Source: Cherax quadricarinatus (lineage: Eukaryota; Arthropoda; Malacostraca; Decapoda; Parastacidae). From it: a DNA stretch of 64,000 bases. The stretch lies in NCBI RefSeq assembly GCF_038502225.1, contig NC_091369.1:9488305-9552304 (forward strand). The letters are read 5' to 3'. This document shows positions 3,641 through 52,880 of this stretch, piece by piece (the stretch's first letter is position 1; every line of letters starts with the position of its first letter). The notes beneath the pieces were generated by a model. It had not been told where the DNA came from and made no database searches. It saw only the letters and a program-made list of their open reading frames with translations. Position numbers and translations under genes: made by a program.

Positions 3641-3886
3641 AGGGAACACATCTTTGTTGGTACACATCTTTGTTGGTACACATCTTTGTTGGTACACATC
3701 TTTGTTGGAGCACATCTTTGTTGGAGCACATCTTTGTTGGAGCACATCTTTGTTGGAACACATCTTTGTTGGAACACATCTTTGTTGGTACACATCTTTG
3801 TTGGTACACATCTTTGTTGGTACACATCTTTGTTGGTACACATCTTTGTTGGTACACATCTTTGTTGGTACACATCTTTGTTGGTG
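3641..3886. repeat. 16-bp minisatellite, about 15 copies
   Basis: The unit acacatctttgttggt repeats with variants ggtacaca, ggagcaca and ggaacaca clustered in blocks. Sixteen is not a multiple of three, yet all frames stay open, which produces long meaningless reading frames on both strands. Confidence 0.93.
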
Positions 3887-3925
3887 GTTTAGAAAGACAC
3901 GTAAGCAAACACTATAACATATTTA

Positions 3926-3965
3926 TTAGAAAACCTTTCGGTCCTGGGACCTTGATCACTTCTAA
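3926..3965 (-). ncRNA. hammerhead-like motif, G3-C8 core variant (left arm)
   Basis: On the minus strand: stem I TTAGAA, core GTGATCA (3959 to 3953), one A, stem II GGTCC/GGACC, GAAA, then GGUU and TTCTAA closing stem I. Relative to the canonical CUGANGA core, nucleotides 3 and 8 are both changed so that they can still pair (G3-C8). GAAAC has become GAAAG, so this copy is probably impaired. Confidence 0.55.
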
Positions 3966-3969
3966 CATG

Positions 3970-4016
3970 TTAGAAGTGATCAAGGTCCCAGGTCCCAGGA
4001 CCGAAACGTTTTCTAA
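3970..4016 (+). ncRNA. hammerhead-like motif, G3-C8 core variant (right arm)
   Basis: Stem I TTAGAA (3970-3975) pairs exactly with TTCTAA (4011-4016). Between them lie core GTGATCA (3976-3982), an extra A, stem II GGTCC (3984-3988) with GGACC (3998-4002), and GAAACGTT (4003-4010). Both stems meet the core exactly where a type I hammerhead requires. The loop of stem II is lengthened by a 7-nt duplication. The predicted cleavage position is after 4010. Stem III would be the self-complementary ACGU, which implies a dimeric fold. Confidence 0.6.
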
Positions 4017-4086
4017 TAAATATGTTATAGTGTTTGCTTACGTGTCTTTCTAAACCAACTTGTCGGTATTTATTACCAAGGTTTAT

Positions 4087-4166
4087 ACCATCTTTGTTGG
4101 TACACATCTTTGTTGGAACACATCTTTGTTGGTACACATCTTTGTTGGAACATCTTTGTTGGTACA
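4087..4166. repeat. 16-bp minisatellite, second block
   Basis: About five more copies of the acacatctttgttggt unit, one with a 4-nt deletion, continue the array on the far side of the palindrome. Confidence 0.9.
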
Positions 4167-4376
4167 CATGCTCCAACTTAACGTTCAACACAAAACACGC
4201 TGCAAGACATTATTCTACACCCACCGCTGCCAGAGGTGAGCCATTCGTTTTTTTTCTGCATTTCCTTAATCTCAGTTAAATATAAGTAAATAAAGGTAAT
4301 ATACGTCAACCTAACACAGTCTAACCTGGTATAAACCTTGGTAATAGATACTGATAAATTGGTTTAGAAAGAGACA

Positions 4377-4417
4377 TGAGCAAACGTTTCGGTCCTGGGA
4401 CCCCTGATCACTTCTGA
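4377..4417 (-). ncRNA. hammerhead-like motif, G3-C8 core variant
   Basis: On the minus strand: core GTGATCA (4411 to 4405), stem II GGTCC/GGACC and GAAACGTT (4390 to 4383). Stem I pairing is only partial (UCAGAA against UGCUCA). Confidence 0.5.
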
Positions 4418-4454
4418 GAAGTGACCAAGGTCCTGGGACTGAAACGTTTGCTCA
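4415..4454 (+). ncRNA. hammerhead-like motif, G3-C8 core variant
   Basis: Core GTGACCA (4421-4427), extra A, stem II GGTCC/GGACT, then GAAACGTT (4441-4448). Stem I pairs TGAG with CTCA across one mismatch. Position 7, which is free in hammerheads, differs from the sister copies, while 3 and 8 keep the G-C combination. Confidence 0.5.
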
Positions 4455-4744
4455 CGTGTCTGAAACAATAACAAATACTAAACTGCCGTAACATGTTCAC
4501 TCGAGCAAAAGTGAACACTTCACTTGGGAAAAACATGCACGCTCTAATTGTAGAACAGTTGCGTGTCAGAACCACCCGTGTCACTCGAAATAGCTAACAC
4601 GCAACGATGGCAATATCAACTCTGAAACTGATTAAAACATTAAAGTGTTACCATCTATAAAACAATTTATTGCCTAACTGCAGCAGATTTATTGTATTTC
4701 ACTAAACTACAAACCTTAATTAAAACTTGCTTTAAGCTGTTTAG

Positions 4745-9815: not shown

Positions 9816-10024
9816 CTGCATACCAGGGAGCACAGGTAGAGGGACTTCAAAAGTTCAAAATAATTCAGGTGCTTTATTGAATTTTTAACTAAAACCTAAC
9901 CATCAAACCAGGCTTAATCATGATTAACAAATACGTCTCGCAATATTTCGAGCACGTAGAAATGAAAGAGCAATTCGGAAAAGAAAACAAGCTAGAATTG
10001 CAAATAAACAAGAAGGGTTGGTGC

Positions 10025-10107
<83 letters not shown>
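10025..10107. repeat. (CA)n microsatellite at the 5' junction of a retrotransposon
   Basis: About 41 CA units directly abut the 5' end of the element that follows. Confidence 0.98.
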
Positions 10108-10110
<3 letters not shown>

Positions 10111-10115
10111 TACAC

Positions 10116-12325
10116 AGTAGAGCTACTAGTGGAGGGAGAAGCAGGAAGGCCAGGACGAATGAAGCCAAACTACAAGAAAGGGGACTACACAGGAATGAGG
10201 AACTACCTGAACGGGGTTCAGTGGGACAGAGAACTGGCAGGGAAGCCAGTTAATGAGATGATGGAGTATGTAGCAACAAAATGCAAGGAGGCTGAGGAGA
10301 GGTTTGTACCCAAAGGTAACAGGATTAATGAAAAAGCCAGGATGAGCCCATGGTTTACCCAAAGGTGCAGGGAGGCAAAAACCAAGTGTGCTAGGGAATG
10401 GAAGAAATATAGAAGGCAAAGGACCCAGGAGAATAAGGAGAACAGTCGTAGAGCCAGAAACGAATATGCACAGATAAGAAAGGAGGCCCAAAGACAATAT
10501 GAAAATGACATAGCAGCGAAAGCCAAATCTGACCCGAAACTGTTGTACAGCCACATCAGGAGGAAAACAACAGTCAAGGACCAGGTAATCAGGCTAAGGA
10601 AGGAAGGAGGAGAGACAACAAGAAATGACCGTGAAGTATGTGAAGAACTCAACAAGAGATTCAAAGAAGTGTTCACAGAGGAGACAGAAGGGACTCCAGA
10701 AAGACGGAGAGGTGGGGCACACCACCAAGTGCTGGACACAGTGCACACAACCGAGGAAGAAGTGAAGAGGCTTCTGAGTGAGCTAGATACCTCAAAGGCA
10801 ATGGGGCCAGATAACATCTCCCCATGGGTATTGAGAGAGGGAGCAGAGGCGCTATGTGTACCCCTAACAACAATATTCAATACATCTATCGAAACAGGGA
10901 GATTGCCTGAGGCATGGAAGACAGCAAATGTAGTCCCAATCTTTAAAAAAGGAGACAGACATGAAGCATTAAACTACAGACCAGTGTCACTGACATGTAT
11001 AGTATGCAAAATCATGGAGAAGATTATCAGGAGAAGAGTGGTGGAACACCTAGAAAGGAATGATCTCATCAACAGCAGCCAACATGGTTTCAGGGACGGG
11101 AAATCCCGTCACAAACCTACTGGAGTTCTATGACATGGTGACAGCAGTAAGACAAGAGAGAGAGGGGTGGGTGGATTGCATTTTCTTGGACTGCAAGAAG
11201 GCGTTTGACACAGTTCCACACAAGAGATTGGTGCAAAAACTGGAGGACCAAGCTGGGATAACAGGGAAGGCACTACAATGGATCAGGGAATACTTGTCAG
11301 GAAGACAGCAGCGAGTCATGGTACGTGGCGAGGTGTCAGAGTGGGCACCTGTGACCAGCGGGGTCCCGCAGGGGTCAGTCCTAGGACCAGTGCTGTTTCT
11401 GGTATTTGTGAACGACATGACGGAAGGAATAGACTCTGAGGTGTCCCTGTTTGCAGATGACGTGAAGTTGATGAGAAGAATACACTCGATCGAAGACCAG
11501 GCAGAACTACAAAGGGATCTGGACAGGCTGCAGACCTGGTCCAGCAATTGGCTCCTGGAGTTCAATCCCACCAAGTGCAAAGTCATGAAGATTGGGGAAG
11601 GGCAAAGAAGGCCGCAGACGGAGTACAGTCTAGGGGGTCAGAGACTACAAACCTCACTCAAGGAAAAAGATCTTGGGGTGAGTATAACACCAGGCACATC
11701 TCCTGAAGCGCACATCAACCAAATAACTGCTGCAGCATATGGGCGCCTAGCAAACCTCAGAACAGCATTCCGACATCTTAATAAGGAATCATTCAGGACC
11801 CTGTACACCGTGTATGTTAGGCCCATATTGGAGTATGCGGCACCAGTTTGGAACCCACACCTAGCCAAGCACGTGAAGAAACTAGAGAAAGTGCAAAGGT
11901 TTGCAACAAGACTAGTCCCAGAGCTAAGAGGTATGTCCTACGAGGAGAGGTTAAGGGAAATCAACCTGACGACACTGGAGGACAGGAGAGATAGGGGGGA
12001 CATGATAACGACATACAAAATACTGAGAGGAATTGACAAGGTGGACAATGACAGGATGTTCCAGAGATTGGACACAGTAACAAGGGGACACAGTTGGAAG
12101 CTGAAGACACAGATGAATCACAGGGATGTTAGGAAGTATTTCTTCAGCCACAGAGTAGTCAGTAAGTGGAATAGTTTGGGAAGCGATGTAGTGGAGGCAG
12201 GATCCATACATAGCTTTAAGCAGAGGTATGATAAAGCTCACGGCTCAGGGAGAGTGACCTAGTATCGATCAGTGAAGGGGCGGGGCCAGGAGCTCGGACT
12301 CGACCCCCGCAACCTCAACTAGGTG

Positions 12326-12794: not shown

Positions 12795-12835
12795 AATTTT
12801 GCACGACGCTTCGGTCGCTCGGACTAAAATCAAGT
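12795..12835 (-). ncRNA. degenerate hammerhead-like motif
   Basis: The minus strand reads CTTGATTTTAGTCC-GAGCGACC-GAAGCGTCGTGC. The spacing of the GAAACGTCGTC-like box suggests the same motif class, but stem II and the core are eroded. Confidence 0.25.
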
Positions 12836-13379
12836 CACAACAGACAAGATGGACCAGGACGGACCGAACCATCATAAAATATTTCCTCAACTAAACACGG
12901 GTTATTTGCTAACTGTTCCAGTCACGGTATTGTTACTTGTTATTCTTCTTAACATGGTGTGTTTATCTTGAGGTTGGTAGCCCGGCTCGTCAAGGCTTGA
13001 AGGGCGCCGGATAAACAGTGTGTTTACTAAGCGCTTTATTCAAAGTTGTCCTCCACACTACCACCACCATCATCATCACACGGAAAACTAGATAAGCATA
13101 AAGGGTTTCCGTCTTGTTTACCGGGCGACTGTTCATGGGATCATCGCCCCCGTGACTCGGTGTAGCGATGGAGGGGAAAACCAGGATATCACATAAAACA
13201 GTTACTGATAAAAAAAAAAATGGGTGTACCAAGAGACAAGGGAGAAAACAGAGGCACAAACCATCCTTAGTATCGACTACACAACTAACCGAAGAGCAAG
13301 AAAAAACAGATGAACTAGAGCCAATTATATGTGCAAAGGATATATATTATGACAACCAAAACCAGGTCCAAACTGAAAA

Positions 13380-18691: not shown

Positions 18692-18747
18692 AATCTTTGT
18701 TCAGGAAACGTTTCGCCACACAGTGGCTTCATCAGTCCAATACAAAG
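18692..18747 (-). ncRNA. hammerhead ribozyme, canonical core, Penelope-associated
   Basis: On the minus strand, stem I (CUUUGU, internal loop AUU, GGA at 18747 to 18736) leads into CUGAUGA (18735 to 18729), one extra A, and stem II GCCAC with loop UGU and GUGGC (18727 to 18715). GAAA follows (18714 to 18711), then CGUU, with predicted cleavage after 18707. The sequence then reads UCC, UGA and ACAAAG, which closes stem I with a matching internal loop. An internal loop in stem I facing loop II is what natural type I hammerheads use for tertiary contact. Stem III is only the palindrome ACGU, so activity would need a dimer or a neighbouring copy. Hammerheads of this minimal type are known in Penelope-like elements, and a Penelope RT relic lies about 200 bp upstream on the same strand. 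The extra A before stem II has a precedent in a chrysanthemum viroid hammerhead. Activity is inferred. Confidence 0.75.
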
Positions 18748-33607: not shown

Positions 33608-35551
33608 TTACCTGGATTACCTGGAGGTTATTCCGGGGATCAACGCCCCCGCGGCCCGGTCCATGACCAGGCCTCCCGATGGATCAGGGCCTGATCAACT
33701 AGGCTGTTACTGCTGGCCGCACGCAGTCCAACGTACGAGCCACAGCCCGGCTGATCCGGCACTGACTTTAGGTATCTGTCCAGCTCTCTCTTGAAGGCAG
33801 CCAGGGGTTTATTGGCAATTCCCCTAATGCTTGATGGGAGGCTGTTGAACAGTTTTGGGCCCCGGACACTTATGGTGTTTTCTCTTAGTGTACCAATGGC
33901 GCCCCTACTTTTTATTGGCGGCATTTTGCATCGCCTGCCCAGTCTTTTACTTTCGTAGGGAGTGATTTCTGTGTGCAGATTTGGGACCATTCCTTCCAAG
34001 ATTTTCCAAGTGTAGATTATGATATATCTCTCCCTCCTGCGTTCCAACGAGTACAAGTCAAGTGCTTCCAAGCGTTCCCAGTAGTTAAGGTGCTTGACAG
34101 AACTTATACGTGCAGTAAAGGATCTCTGTACACTCTCTAGATCTGCGATTTCACCTGCTTTGAATGGAGATGTTAATGTACAGCAGTATTCCAGCCTAGA
34201 GAGAACAAGTGATTTGAAAAGGATCATCATGGGCTTGGCATCTCTTGTTTTGAAAGTTCTCATTATCCATCCTATCATTTTCTTTGCACGTGCGATCGTG
34301 GCACTGTTGTGATCCTTGAAAGTGAGATCCTCAGACATTACTACTCCCAGGTCCCTTACATTATTTTTCCGCTCTATTGTATGGCCGGAGTCAGTAGTAT
34401 ACTCTGTTCTAGTTATTATCTCCTCCAGTTTTCCATAACGGAGTAGTTGGAATTTGTCCTCATTGAACATCATATTGTTTACCGTTGCCCACTGGAAAAC
34501 TTTGTTTATATCTTCTTGGAGGTTAACCGCGTCCTCAGCAGATGACAGCCTCATGCAGATCCTAGTATCATCCGCAAAGGATGATACGGTGCTGTGGTGT
34601 ACATCTCTGTTTATGTCTGATATGAGGATAAGGAATAAGATGGGGGCGAGTACTGTGCCTTGTGGAACAGAGCTCTTCACTATGGCAGCCTCCGATTTAA
34701 CTCTGTTGATCACTACTCTTTGTGTTCGATTTGTTAGGAAGTTGAAGATCCATCTCCCCACTTTCCCAGTTATTCCTTTAGAACGTATTTTATGGGCTAT
34801 TACGCCATGATCGCATTTGTCAAATGCTTTTGCAAAGTCTGTGTATATTACATCTGCATTCTGATTTTCTTCCAGTGCATCCAAGGCCATGTCATAGTGA
34901 TCCAGTAGTTGTGAGAGGCAGGAGCGACCTGCCCTGAACCCATGTTGCCCTGGATTGTGCAGATTTTGGGAATCCAGGTGATTTGCAATCCTGCTTCTTA
35001 GCACTCTTTCAAAGATTTTTATGATGTGGGACGTCAGAGCTATTGGTCTATAGTTCTTAGCTAATGCTTTGCTGCCACCTTTATGGAGTGGGGCTATATC
35101 CGTTGTTTTAAGTGACTGTGGAATTTCACCCATGTCCAAGCTCCTCCTCCACAGTGTACTTAGGGCACGCGAGAGGGGTTTCTTGCAGTTCTTAATGAAA
35201 ACAGAGTTCCACGAATCTGGGCCCGGGGCTGAGTGCATAGGCATGTTGTCAATGGCTTTTTCGAAATCTATCGGAGTTAGGGTAATGTCGGAAATCTGGC
35301 ATACATTTATGGAGTTTTGAGGCTCATTCATGAAGAAATCATTTGGGTCGTCGATCCTCAGACCGATTAGTGGTTCACTAAACACAGAGTCGTACTGGGA
35401 TTTCAATATTTCACTCATTTCCTTGTTGTCATCTGTGTAAGTCCCATCCTGTCTGAGTAAGGGCCCGATACTAGATGTGGTACTAAACTTCTTTAACATG
35501 TTAGGCTCGCACTGTCTCATACAGAGGAGACATGAATACGACTCATCAGAT
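33608..35551 (-). mobile_element. reference copy of the dominant non-LTR retrotransposon family
   Basis: The 3' end is at acctggaggttattcc (about 33608). The 5' limit is a stop near 35551, where similarity to an element ends. It is 5'-truncated, so ORF1 and the endonuclease are missing. Its terminal 150 bp recur throughout the window on both strands. Confidence 0.88.
33640..35520 (-). CDS. reverse transcriptase of a Jockey/CR1-like retrotransposon, uninterrupted
   Basis: This 626-codon frame encodes the RT that copies element RNA at the target. Segments in order: APGPDSWNSVF (residues 98-108), NYRPIALTSH (156-165), GQHGFRAGRS (191-200), IYTDFAKAFD with the first catalytic Asp (225-234), SSVPQGTVLAPILF (283-296), SFADD with the catalytic pair (314-318, nt 34578-34567), NNVRDLGVVMSEDLTF, then a C-terminal domain. 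That domain includes LVLSRLEYCCTLTSPFKAG, LNYWERLEALDLYSLERRRE and SVPDQPGCGSYVGLRAASSN. The first codon is arbitrary, because the true protein starts further upstream with an endonuclease now absent. No internal stop or frameshift is present, so insertion was recent. It is likely silent without a promoter. Lineage placement (Jockey versus CR1/L2) is uncertain. Confidence 0.92.
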   Translation of the reverse strand: MRQCEPNMLKKFSTTSSIGPLLRQDGTYTDDNKEMSEILKSQYDSVFSEPLIGLRIDDPNDFFMNEPQNSINVCQISDITLTPIDFEKAIDNMPMHSAPGPDSWNSVFIKNCKKPLSRALSTLWRRSLDMGEIPQSLKTTDIAPLHKGGSKALAKNYRPIALTSHIIKIFERVLRSRIANHLDSQNLHNPGQHGFRAGRSCLSQLLDHYDMALDALEENQNADVIYTDFAKAFDKCDHGVIAHKIRSKGITGKVGRWIFNFLTNRTQRVVINRVKSEAAIVKSSVPQGTVLAPILFLILISDINRDVHHSTVSSFADDTRICMRLSSAEDAVNLQEDINKVFQWATVNNMMFNEDKFQLLRYGKLEEIITRTEYTTDSGHTIERKNNVRDLGVVMSEDLTFKDHNSATIARAKKMIGWIMRTFKTRDAKPMMILFKSLVLSRLEYCCTLTSPFKAGEIADLESVQRSFTARISSVKHLNYWERLEALDLYSLERRRERYIIIYTWKILEGMVPNLHTEITPYESKRLGRRCKMPPIKSRGAIGTLRENTISVRGPKLFNSLPSSIRGIANKPLAAFKRELDRYLKSVPDQPGCGSYVGLRAASSNSLVDQALIHREAWSWTGPRGR

Positions 35552-42545: not shown

Positions 42546-43712
42546 CTGGAGTATTATGAAGCTCGAACCTTCAGAGTGAAGTACATATTATGAAGCTCGA
42601 ACCTTCAGAGTGAAGTACATATTATGAAGCTCGAACCTTCAGAGTGGAGTACATATTATGAAGCTCGAACCTTCAGAGTGGAGTACATATTATGAAGCTC
42701 GAACCTTCAGAGTGGAGTACATATTATGAAGCTCGAACCTTCAGAGTGGAGTACATATTATGAAGCTCTAACCTTCAGAGTGGAGTACATATTATGAAGC
42801 TTCAACCTTCAGAGTGGAGTACATATTATGAAGCTCGAACCTTCAGAGTGAAGTACATATTATGAAGCTCTAACCTTCAGAGTGGAGTACATAATATGAA
42901 GCTCGAACCTTCAGAGTGAAGTACATATTATGAAGCTCGAACCTTCAGAGTGAAGTACATATTATGAAGCTTGAACCTTCAGAGTGAAGTACATATTATG
43001 AAGCTCGAACCTTCAGAGTGAAGTACATATTATGAAGCTCGAACCTTCAGAGTGAAGTACATATTATGAAGCTTGAACCTTCAGAGTGGAGTACATATTA
43101 TGAAGCTTGAACCTTCAGAGTGAAGTACATATTATGAAGCTCGAACCTTCAGAGTGAAGTACATATTATGAAGCTTGAACCTTCAGAGTGAAGTACATAT
43201 TATGAAGCTCGAACCTTCAGAATGAAGTACATATTATGAAGCTCGAACCTTCAGAGTGGAGTACATATTATGAAGCTTGAACCTTCAGAGTGAAGTACAT
43301 ATTATGAAGCTCGAACCTTCAGAGTGAAGTACATATTATGAAGCTTGAACCTTCAGAGTGAAGTACATATTATGAAGCTCGAACCTTCAGAGTGAAGTAC
43401 ATATTATGAAGCTTGAACCTTCAGAGTGAAGTACATATTATGAAGCTCGAACCTTCAGAGTGAAGTACATATTATGAAGCTCGAACCTTCAGAATGAAGT
43501 ACATATTATGAAGCTCGAACCTTCAGAGTGGAGTACATATTATGAAGCTTGAACCTTCAGAGTGAAGTACATATTATGAAGCTCGAACCTTCAGAGTGAA
43601 GTACATATTATGAAGCTTGAACCTTCAGAGTGAAGTACATATTATGAAGCTCGAACCTTCAGAGTGAAGTACATATTATGAAGCTCGAACCTTCAGAGTG
43701 GAGTACATTATA
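42546..43712. repeat. 34-bp satellite, about 34 copies
   Basis: The unit attatgaagctcgaaccttc plus agagtgaagtacat repeats at exactly 34 bp. Variants are tcgaac/ttgaac and gtgaag/gtggag. A rare agaatg variant at 43219 and 43491 marks a 272-bp (8-mer) higher-order repeat. Each unit contains GAACCTTC. Confidence 0.97.
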
Positions 43713-43739
43713 TGACAAGTGAAACCTTAGCTATATCTT

Positions 43740-44075: not shown

Positions 44076-46611
44076 GATGTGTACTCTAGTCTATATGCTC
44101 CTCGTGCAGGTGTATACTCTAGCCTCTCTATATGCTCCTGCTGCAGGGGTGTACTCTAGCCTCTCTATATGCTCCTGCTGCAGGTGTGTACTCTAGCCTC
44201 TAGCTCCTACTGCAGGTGTGTACTCCAGCCTCTATATGCTCCTCCTGCTGGTGTGTACTTTAGCCTCTATATGCTCCTCCTGCTGGTGTTTACTTTAGCC
44301 TCTGTATGCTCCTCCTGCAGGTGTGTACTCCAGAATCTGTATGCTCCTGCAGTTGTGTACTCCAGCCTCTGTACGCTCCTGCAGGTGTGTACTCCAGCCT
44401 CCATATGCTCCTCCTGCAGGTGTGTACTCCAGCCTCTGTATGCTACTCCTGCAGGTGTGTACTCCAGCCTCCAAATGCTGCTCCTGCAGATGTGTACTCC
44501 AGCCTCCATATGCTCCTCCTGCAGGTGTGTGCTCCAGCCTCCATATGCTGCTCCTGCAGGTGTGTAATCCAGCCTCCATATGCTCCTCCTGCAGGTGTGT
44601 AATCCAGCCTCCATATGCTCCTCCTGCAGGTGTGTAATCCAGCCTCCATATGCTCCTCCTGCAGGTGTGTACTCCAGCCTCCATATGCTCCTCCTGCAGA
44701 TGTGTACTCCAGCCTCCATATGCTCCTCCTGCAGATATGTACTCCAGCCTCCATATGCTGCTCCTGCAGGTGTACTCCAGCCTCCATATGCTGCTCCTGC
44801 AGGTGTGTATTCCAGCCTCCATATGCTGCTCCTGCAGGTGTGTACTCCAGCCTCCATATGCTGCTCCTGCAGGTGTGTACTCTTGCCTCCATATGCTACT
44901 CCTGCAGGTGTGTACTCTTGCCTCCATATGCTGCTCCTGCAGGTGTGTACTCCAACCTCCATATGCTCCTCCTGCAGGTGTGTACTTCAGCCTCCATATC
45001 CTCCTCCTGCAGGTGTGTACTCTTGCATCCATATGCTGCTCCTGCAGGTGTGTACTCTTGCCTCCATATGCTACTCCTGCAGGTGTGTACTCTTGCCTCC
45101 ATATGCTGCTCCTGCAGGTGTGTACTCCAACCTCCATATGCTCCTCCTGCAGGTGTGTACTTCAGCCTCCATATCCTCCTCCTGCAGGTGTGTACTCTTG
45201 CATCCATATGCTGCTCCTGCAGGTGTGTACTCTTGCCTCCATATGCTGCTCCTGCAGGTGTGTACTCTTGCCTCCATATGCTGCTCCTGCAGGTGTGTAC
45301 TCTTGCATCCATATGCTGCTCCTGCAGGTGTGTACTCCAGCCTCCATATGCTCCTCCTGCAGGTGTGTACTTCAGCCTCCATATCCTCCTCCTGCAGGTG
45401 TGTACTCCAGCCTCCATATGCTCCTCCTGCAGGTGTGTACTCTTGCCTCCATATGCTGCTCCTGCAGGTGTGTACTCCAGCCTCCATATGCTCCTCCTGC
45501 AGGTGTGTACTCTTGCCTCCATATGCTGCTCCTGCAGGTGTGTACTCCAGCCTCCATATGCTGCTCCTGCAGGTGTGTACTCCAGCCTCCATATGCTGCT
45601 CCTGCAGGTGTGTACTCCAGCCTCCATATGCTGCTCCTGCAGGTGTGTACTCCAGCCTCCATATGCTGCTCCTGCAGGTGTGTACTCCAGCCTCCATATG
45701 CTGCTCCTGCAGGTGTGTACTCCAGCCTCCATATGCTGCTCCTGCAGGTGTGTACTCCAGCCTCCATATGCTGCTCCTGCAGGTGTGTACTCCAGCCTCC
45801 ATATGCTGCTCCTGCAGGTGTGTACTCCAGCCTCCATATGCTGCTCCTGCAGGTGTGTACTCTTGCCTCCATATGCTGCTCCTGCAGGTGTGTACTCCAG
45901 CCTCCATATGCTGCTCCTGCAGGTGTGTACTCCAGCCTCCATATGCTGCTCCTGCAGGTGTGTACTCTTGCCTCCATATGCTGCTCCTGCAGGTGTGTAC
46001 TCCAGCCTCCATATGCTGCTCCTGCAGGTGTGTACTCCAGCCTCCATATGCTGCTCCTGCAGGTGTGTACTCCAGCCTCCATATGCTGCTCCTGCAGGTG
46101 TGTACTCCAGCCTCCATATGCTGCTCCTGCAGGTGTGTACTCCAGCCTCCATATGCTGCTCCTGCAGGTGTGTACTCTTGCCTCCATATGCTGCTCCTGC
46201 AGGTGTGTACTCCAGCCTCCATATGCTGCTCCTGCAGGTGTGTACTCCAGCCTCCATATGCTGCTCCTGCAGGTGTGTACTCTTGCCTCCATATGCTGCT
46301 CCTGCAGGTGTGTACTCCAGCCTCCATATGCTGCTCCTGCAGGTGTGTACTCCAGCCTCCATATGCTGCTCCTGCAGGTGTGTACTCTTGCCTCCATATG
46401 CTGCTCCTGCAGGTGTGTACTCCAGCCTCCATATGCTGCTCCTGCAGGTGTGTACTCCAGCCTCCATATGCTGCTCCTGCAGGTGTGTACTCTTGCCTCC
46501 ATATGCTGCTCCTGCAGGTGTGTACTCCAGCCTCCATATGCTGCTCCTGCAGGTGTGTACTCCAGCCTCCATATGCTGCTCCTGCAGGTGTGTACTCCAG
46601 CCTCCATATGC
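44076..46611. repeat. 35-bp satellite, about 72 copies, with 105-bp higher-order repeat
   Basis: The unit tgctgctcctgcaggtgtgt plus actccagcctccata contains a CTGCAG in most copies. The left 400 bp is diverged, with indels. The right kilobase is nearly homogeneous and ends abruptly at 46611. A tcttg variant recurs at 45861, 45966, 46176, 46281, 46386 and 46491 (multiples of 105). No stop codon occurs in any of the three frames of either strand of the common unit, which explains overlapping open frames of 400-750 codons. I do not consider them genes. Confidence 0.97.
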
Positions 46612-46614
46612 TCC

Positions 46615-52640: not shown

Positions 52641-52699
52641 GCTAAAAAGAATAATACATGTCACCGATACGTGCTAAAAACAATTCACACAAAAAGAGG

Positions 52700-52748
52700 C
52701 CACACTTAAGACGACGTTTCAGTCCGTCTTGGACCACTGTCACCGATA
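52700..52748 (-). ncRNA. hammerhead-like box
   Basis: The minus strand reads GGTGACAGT, stem II GGTCC with loop AAGAC and GGACT, then GAAACGTCGTC. Stem II and the GAAACGTC box are intact, but the upstream core does not align cleanly to CUGANGA. Confidence 0.35.
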
Positions 52749-52749
52749 A

Positions 52750-52880
52750 GTACTAGACTACCTGGAGGGTATTCAGGGGATCAACGCCCCCGCGGCACGG
52801 TCCATGACCAGGCTTCCCGGTGGATCAGGGACTGATCAACTAGGATGTTACTGCTAGCCGCACGTAGTCCAACGTAGATC
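52750..52880 (-). repeat. retrotransposon 3' end, close to the reference
   Basis: The block actacctggagggtattcag, then gatcaacgcccccgcggcac and cggtggatcagggactgatc. Confidence 0.85.

What the first reader, a model, noticed from the sequence alone, without database searches (positions are those of the whole stretch)
3887..4466. Hammerhead-like family with the core 3-8 base pair swapped to G3-C8
Seen: four arms in two palindromes carry GUGANCA in place of CUGANGA, between a stem I (TTAGAA/TTCTAA, exact in the 3970-4016 copy) and stem II (GGTCC/GGACC), followed by GAAACGTT in three of four. Known: in the full-length hammerhead structure, C3 and G8 form a Watson-Crick pair, and a swapped double mutant restores cleavage. 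Inferred: this is a natural lineage with the swap, which would be unusual and biologically informative.
Basis: partly seen in the sequence, partly recalled or inferred. Interest (0 to 1): 0.88.

Follow-up and report, generated by a model that had tools for sequence, protein, structure and literature searches.

The report
Retrotransposon ribozyme with swapped core pair
Thousands of copies of a jumping gene in this large animal genome carry a hammerhead-type self-cutting RNA motif in which one paired position of the core is flipped, while sister jumping genes in the same genome use two other pairings there; whether the flipped version cuts has not been tested.

Summary
Four arms in two palindromes (3886-4089, about 4327-4461) carry GUGANCA, one or two extra bases, stem II and GAAA. 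Three continue as GAAACGUU, and 3970-4016 has a perfect six-pair stem I.

The palindromes are foldback copies of a Penelope-like retrotransposon (PLE). Longer copies carry reverse transcriptase and a GIY-YIG-like region upstream of the motif. The 3886-4089 copy has a 12-base target duplication. The motif pattern occurs 10,369 times in the 3.95 Gb genome, control 1,137.

Using the element tail as a core-independent anchor, 65 of 100 copies had an intact readable core: U3-A8 35, G3-C8 26, C3-G8 3, A-A 1 (foldback junctions set aside). All 26 intact cores with this family's tail are G3-C8. The 3-8 pair thus covaries across homologous PLE families.

Natural U3-A8 is already reported (PMC3088659). 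An engineered C3G/G8C double mutant is partly active in a PLE hammerhead (PMC11167929). I found no report of natural G3-C8, but key papers are not held. Cleavage is untested, and in the window's own copies the long hairpin should block it.

The parts
3886..4089 (+). Palindrome 1: complete foldback insertion of the G3-C8 Penelope-like element, 204 bases, head-to-head arms
   Evidence: inverted self-match 3885-4057; both element ends and a 12/12 target duplication found
3874..3885 (.). left target-site duplication ATCTTTGTTGGT (inside a 16-base minisatellite)
4090..4101 (.). right target-site duplication ATCTTTGTTGGT
3970..4016 (+). hammerhead copy P1+: stem I 3970-3975/4011-4016, core GTGATCA 3976-3982, extra A 3983, stem II 3984-3988/3998-4002, GAAACGTT 4003-4010; expected cut after T4010
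3926..3965 (-). hammerhead copy P1-: core GTGATCA 3953-3959; GAAAGGTT (C15.2 changed)
4327..4461 (-). Palindrome 2: older foldback copy of a related subfamily; outer limits approximate
   Evidence: inverted self-match 4370-4461 and match of 4327-4452 to 4090-3928
4415..4454 (+). hammerhead copy P2+: core GTGACCA 4421-4427, GAAACGTT; stem I TGAGAA/TGCTCA, 5 of 6 positions can pair
4377..4417 (-). hammerhead copy P2-: core GTGATCA 4405-4411, two extra bases, GAAACGTT; stem I 4 of 6 positions can pair
18701..18741 (-). sister PLE hammerhead with the standard C3-G8 core CTGATGA and the same GAAACGTT

Best explanation
The motif is the minimal hammerhead ribozyme of a Penelope-like retrotransposon family in which the core 3-8 Watson-Crick pair is G3-C8 instead of C3-G8. 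It lies downstream of the element ORF and upstream of a conserved element tail (shown). The same genome holds homologous PLE families with U3-A8 and C3-G8 in the same slot (shown), so position 3-8 appears to be kept for pairing rather than for particular bases (selection is inferred). The likely mode of action is that of other PLE hammerheads: element RNA folds stems I and II around the core and cuts after U17, slowly alone and perhaps better as a dimer (ACGU could form a shared stem III) or with the element protein (all inferred). The two window palindromes are foldback copies: cDNA or second-strand synthesis appears to have folded back just upstream of, or inside, the ribozyme core, giving head-to-head duplicates with 12-base target duplications (structure shown, route inferred). 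In these copies the long hairpin should hide the ribozyme.
For: Genome count 10,369 against control 1,137. RVT_1 (E 9.8e-11) and a sub-threshold GIY-YIG match in an ORF upstream of the motif in L042. Target duplications: of 21 stretches examined, 15 showed both ends; 11 are 12/12, 3 are 11/12, 1 is 9/12. 3-8 pairs left open in 264 kb: 18 of 19 Watson-Crick, three types. Structure counts on 22 rows: 3-8 is G-C 10, U-A 6, C-G 5, other 1; stems I and II covary too. Tail-anchored, core-independent sample: 64 of 65 intact cores paired, 26 of 26 G-C in this family. Shared downstream sequence across the families. Of the 26 G-C copies, 18 keep six stem I pairs, 24 keep all four scored stem II pairs and 23 keep GAAACGTT. 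Engineered C3G/G8C partly active in a PLE hammerhead (PMC11167929, passages).
Against: No activity data. There is no intramolecular stem III. The full palindromes fold at -129.8 and -62.8 kcal/mol (plus strands) against -14.7 and -6.5 for the ribozyme strands alone, and the palindrome 2 strands do not choose the hammerhead fold. The GIY-YIG match is below its curated cut-off. Uniformity of the core may only reflect recent amplification from one source. The number of independent pair changes is small, since copies share descent. Rfam gives no hammerhead match at 3850-4500, but it also misses the standard-core copy.
Confidence: 0.8

Rival explanations
1. A dead or nearly dead hammerhead: the G3-C8 core arose once in a PLE lineage that no longer needs cleavage and was amplified as a passenger.
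For: In the PAc PLE, hammerhead mutants still inserted in vitro and the double mutant only partly restored cleavage (PMC11167929, passages). Copies in the sample are nearly identical, so no selection on the core within the family can be shown. Foldback copies bury the ribozyme.
Against: A neutral core should show unpaired 3-8 lineages, yet three paired types and one unpaired intact read appear in 65. The diverged palindrome 2 subfamily also keeps G3-C8 and most of stem I and stem II.
Confidence: 0.3
2. The swap is kept because it makes the core palindromic (TGATCA), which helps cDNA fold back and prime; pairing at 3-8 is a by-product.
For: In 5 of 40 copies with this tail the foldback falls inside the core at TTGATCAA or a near variant (L092, L133, L143, L161, L163).
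Against: The U3-A8 family, without that palindrome, also makes foldbacks at or near its core (L053, L059, L061). In other copies of this family the foldback lies upstream of the core.
Confidence: 0.08
3. An ordinary inverted repeat or hairpin transposon whose likeness to a hammerhead is coincidental.
For: The window copies are long hairpins and give sub-threshold Rfam matches to microRNA precursors (mir-3913, 53.8 bits against a gathering score of 100).
Against: The PLE ORF, sister copies with the standard core and a homologous tail, shuffles and covariation in stem I, stem II and at 3-8.
Confidence: 0.02

Closest known systems
Minimal hammerheads of Penelope-like elements (PAc of Anolis, PMC11167929, passages; review PMC6155905, passages)
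   Same: Stem I, stem II and core in the pLTR region of a PLE, stem III lacking or minimal
   Different: Natural G3-C8 core here (PAc has C3 and G8); the motif lies after the ORF in the copies seen, and copies are mostly head-to-head foldbacks
Hammerheads with natural U3-A8 (PMC3088659, passages)
   Same: The 3-8 pair replaced as a unit in nature
   Different: There U-A, in 'several hammerhead ribozyme examples'; here G-C in about 9,000 PLE copies (control-subtracted), with U-A and C-G in sister families
Animal retrozymes (PMC7229834, passages)
   Same: Animal repeats with type I hammerheads
   Different: Those are small non-coding repeats of about 170-400 nt often in tandem, mostly with a stem III; here a coding PLE with foldback copies
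pDo500 satellite hammerhead of cave crickets (PMC2837043, passages)
   Same: Arthropod repeat hammerhead with covarying stems

Membership tests
Hammerhead ribozyme | Core U4 G5 A6 N7 .. A9 and G12 A13 A14 | tested here: met
   All four arms have UGAN, A9 and GAAA
Hammerhead ribozyme | C3 and G8 as the consensus bases | tested here: not met
   G3 and C8 in all four arms and in 26 of 26 intact family cores
Hammerhead ribozyme | Watson-Crick pair between positions 3 and 8 | tested here: met
   18 of 19; 64 of 65 intact cores
Hammerhead ribozyme | Stems I and II | tested here: met
   Both covary on 22 rows; stem I cells paired 68.9%, stem II 95.5%
Hammerhead ribozyme | Stem III | tested here: not met
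   Only ACGU between GAAA and stem I, no hairpin; PLE hammerheads are described as lacking helix III (PMC6155905)
Hammerhead ribozyme | Self-cleavage after position 17 | not testable with these tools
   needs RNA biochemistry
Hammerhead ribozyme | Match to an Rfam hammerhead model | tested here: inconclusive
   None; the standard-core copy is missed as well
Penelope-like element | Reverse transcriptase in the element ORF | tested here: met
   L042 ORF, RVT_1 E 9.8e-11, 42.2 bits, cut-off 29.6
Penelope-like element | GIY-YIG endonuclease | tested here: inconclusive
   18.4 bits, below the 22.6 cut-off; the motif GVYTIPC...CPKKYVGETGR can be read in the L042 ORF
Penelope-like element | Hammerhead in the pLTR/UTR | tested here: met
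   118 (L031) and about 190 (L042) bases after the ORF, before the tail
Penelope-like element | PLE clade in an RT tree | not tested
   genome search for PLE proteins did not complete
Retrozyme | Small non-coding tandem repeats | tested here: not met
   Longer copies hold an RT ORF; the short copies examined are head-to-head, not tandem

The most novel reading that the evidence does not exclude
A naturally swapped G3-C8 hammerhead is catalytically competent in its PLE context (alone, as a dimer, or helped by the element protein) and has been the working ribozyme of a lineage with about 9,000 copies, while sister PLEs in the same genome run on U3-A8 and C3-G8. One genome would then hold three working solutions of the same catalytic pair.
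Probability: 0.55. Interest if true: 0.75.

Novelty: new variant of a known kind. Interest (0 to 1): 0.66.

Why it matters
The 3-8 pair of the hammerhead core was tested with engineered double mutants. Here nature supplies three pair types in homologous elements of one genome, so the rule that pairing rather than base identity matters at 3-8 can be tested on natural pairs. Searches that use the CUGANGA consensus would miss both the G3-C8 and the U3-A8 PLE hammerheads, which together were 61 of the 65 intact cores in the tail-anchored sample.

Tried and rejected
Natural swapped cores elsewhere: GTGANCANNGTCC...GGACNGAAAC gave 0 loci in viral contigs and 15 in genome contigs, two of them apparently the same place. 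Read with flanks, none of them showed a convincing hammerhead to my eye; by my own rough estimate (no call) about 30 chance hits were expected. The wider TGATNANGGTCC scan gave 5 viral loci, all reading CTGATGA, i.e. C3-G8. An element-body pattern and a sister-core pattern gave 0 viral loci.

Sequence fragment in papers: 2 papers, unrelated by title. PLE protein inside the window: none seen in a motif scan. MicroRNA reading: rejected, sub-threshold hairpin matches.

Not obtained: the whole-genome count of family copies with only one of positions 3 and 8 changed (pattern unanswered from then on), the recalled TTGANAATGG family and a Pfam GIY-YIG search of the genome. The 0 is an exact-pattern count, and the tool warns that no match does not show rarity.

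Reads set aside: in the G-C family, T3/C8 reads L133, L143, L161 (and L092, counted as 'none') and the T3/A8 read L163 are foldbacks inside the core, so position 3 belongs to the inverted arm; I judged this by eye from the printed sequences. With the four that read included, 65 of 69 reads are paired. The automatic reading kept 77 of 100, of which 65 were Watson-Crick and 12 not.

Full report
What is there. The window is G000:C78:9488305-9552304 of a genome of 3,952,656,770 bases in 7334 contigs. The repeats suggest a decapod crustacean; that is recalled, not shown. Two palindromes lie at 3886-4089 and about 4327-4461. Each strand of each carries one GTGANCA, one or two extra bases, a GGTCC-type stem II and GAAA; three of the four continue as GAAACGTT. 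The 3970-4016 copy has six exact stem I pairs and folds as stem I, core loop and stem II. The heptamer alone is at chance. The full descriptor with positions 3 and 8 open gives 4 hits in the window, against at least one hit in 60 of 2000 shuffles. The fourth hit, at 18711-18735 on the minus strand, has the standard CTGATGA core.

Carrier. GTGANCA-N(8-30)-GAAACGTT occurs 10,369 times in the genome, control 1,137. By my hand count, 55 of the 100 listed places are letter-identical and 13 are unrelated. Many come as minus-then-plus pairs. Stretches around 20 places were fetched. L031 and L042 hold an ORF upstream of the motif. The L042 ORF matches RVT_1 (E 9.8e-11) and, below its curated cut-off, GIY-YIG (E 0.0026). 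The motif begins 118 bases (L031) and about 190 bases (L042) after the ORF. I read this as a Penelope-like element with its hammerhead in the pLTR region. In 15 of 21 stretches (20 fetched and the window piece) both element ends were found: 11 have a 12/12 target duplication, 3 have 11/12 and 1 has 9/12, allowing shifts of up to 3 bases. Palindrome 1 is one of the 12/12 cases, but it sits in a 16-base minisatellite, where a duplication is less certain. The left arm is the inverted 3' region of the element, and foldback centres lie beside or inside the ribozyme core in the copies printed or further upstream in longer copies.

Position 3-8. Three tests left the pair open. First, 264 kb (window plus 20 arbitrary 10 kb pieces): 51 GAAACGTH sites, 19 with core and stem II; pairs T-A 8, C-G 6, G-C 4, C-A 1. 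On 16 distinct sequences 15 are paired against a permuted mean of 5.5, reached by 0 of 20,000 permutations. Second, an alignment of 22 distinct motifs, 6 of whose 10 G-C rows come from stretches found with the GTGANCA pattern and so are biased: pair 3-8 is G-C 10, U-A 6, C-G 5, other 1. Stems I and II also covary (score 0.554, shuffled mean 0.206, slid at most 0.171); stem I pairs in only 68.9% of cells. Third, and freest of bias, the conserved element tail as anchor: 6950+6839 places, control 0. The 100 listed places, all on contig C1, were fetched. The automatic reading took 77 and left 23: T-A 36, G-C 26, C-G 3, T-C 6, T-G 2, A-C 2, A-A 1, G-G 1; on 37 distinct sequences 25 are paired, permuted mean 13.7, 0 of 20,000 as high. 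The stricter reading gave, for 40 copies with this family's tail, 26 G-C, 3 T-C, 1 T-A and 10 without a core (one masked); for 60 with other tails, 35 T-A, 3 C-G, 1 A-A and 21 without a core. The T-C and T-A reads in this family are foldbacks inside the core, so position 3 there belongs to the inverted arm; setting these 4 aside leaves 65 intact cores, 64 paired. Copies with both positions changed and the rest intact: 0. Of the 26 G-C copies, 18 keep six stem I pairs, 24 keep all four scored stem II pairs and 23 keep GAAACGTT.

Homology of the families. Downstream of the ribozyme seven representatives of the G-C, T-A, C-G and C-A versions align over a run that includes invariant GTGTC and TGT-GGT columns. 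So the versions occupy the same slot in related elements. The number of independent changes of pair is small, perhaps two to four (my judgement), because copies share descent.

Reading. The best account is a PLE minimal hammerhead whose 3-8 pair has been replaced as a unit. The swap is compatible with function. PMC11167929 (passages) reports that in the PAc PLE hammerhead C3G and G8C each eliminate activity and the double mutant partly restores it, that cleavage needed added protein, and that insertion in vitro did not need the ribozyme. PMC3088659 (passages) reports natural U3-A8 and cites in vitro tests. [quoted passage not shown] I saw no natural G3-C8 hammerhead in the listings or in the passages read. 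Listings 20, 51 and 52 were not complete, and Cervera and De la Pena 2014 and Przybilski and Hammann 2007 are not held, so novelty is provisional.

Limits. There are no activity data. In the window's own copies the whole palindrome folds far more strongly (-129.8 and -62.8 kcal/mol, plus strands) than the ribozyme strand alone (-14.7 and -6.5), and the palindrome 2 strands do not choose the hammerhead fold, so these copies are probably silent as ribozymes; longer copies need not be. Rfam is uninformative here, since it also misses the standard-core copy.

Noticed in passing
L050:6402-6442, L053:499-539, L061:5014-5054, L066:4026-4066: PLE hammerheads with U3-A8 (TTGATAA) in at least two families of the same genome; one (TTGATAAAGCCAC...) is the commonest intact core in the tail-anchored sample, 35 of 65.
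   Followed up: yes
L092, L133, L143, L161, L163; window 3966-3969: Foldback junctions of these PLE copies often sit at small self-complementary spots within or just upstream of the ribozyme core, suggesting self-primed cDNA.
   Followed up: partly
L042:1778-3181: A head-to-head PLE copy of about 3.0 kb whose RT/GIY-YIG ORF is present as a 468-codon frame on both strands.
   Followed up: no
window 52695-52760(-) and 12820-12890(+): Degenerate sequences resembling a further GGTCC...GGACC hammerhead-like family with GAAACGTCGTC (family recalled, not tested).
   Followed up: partly
window 10018-12262(+) and 33640-35520(-): Non-LTR-type reverse transcriptase ORFs by their FADD motifs; not scanned against a family library.
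   Followed up: no
window 42552-43715 and 44078-46612: Large tandem arrays with 34- and 35-base units; the second leaves long open frames on both strands.
   Followed up: no
L001-L005: Viral contigs (IMG/VR) with standard-core hammerhead-like CTGATGA-N-GGTCC...GGACC-GAAAC.
   Followed up: partly
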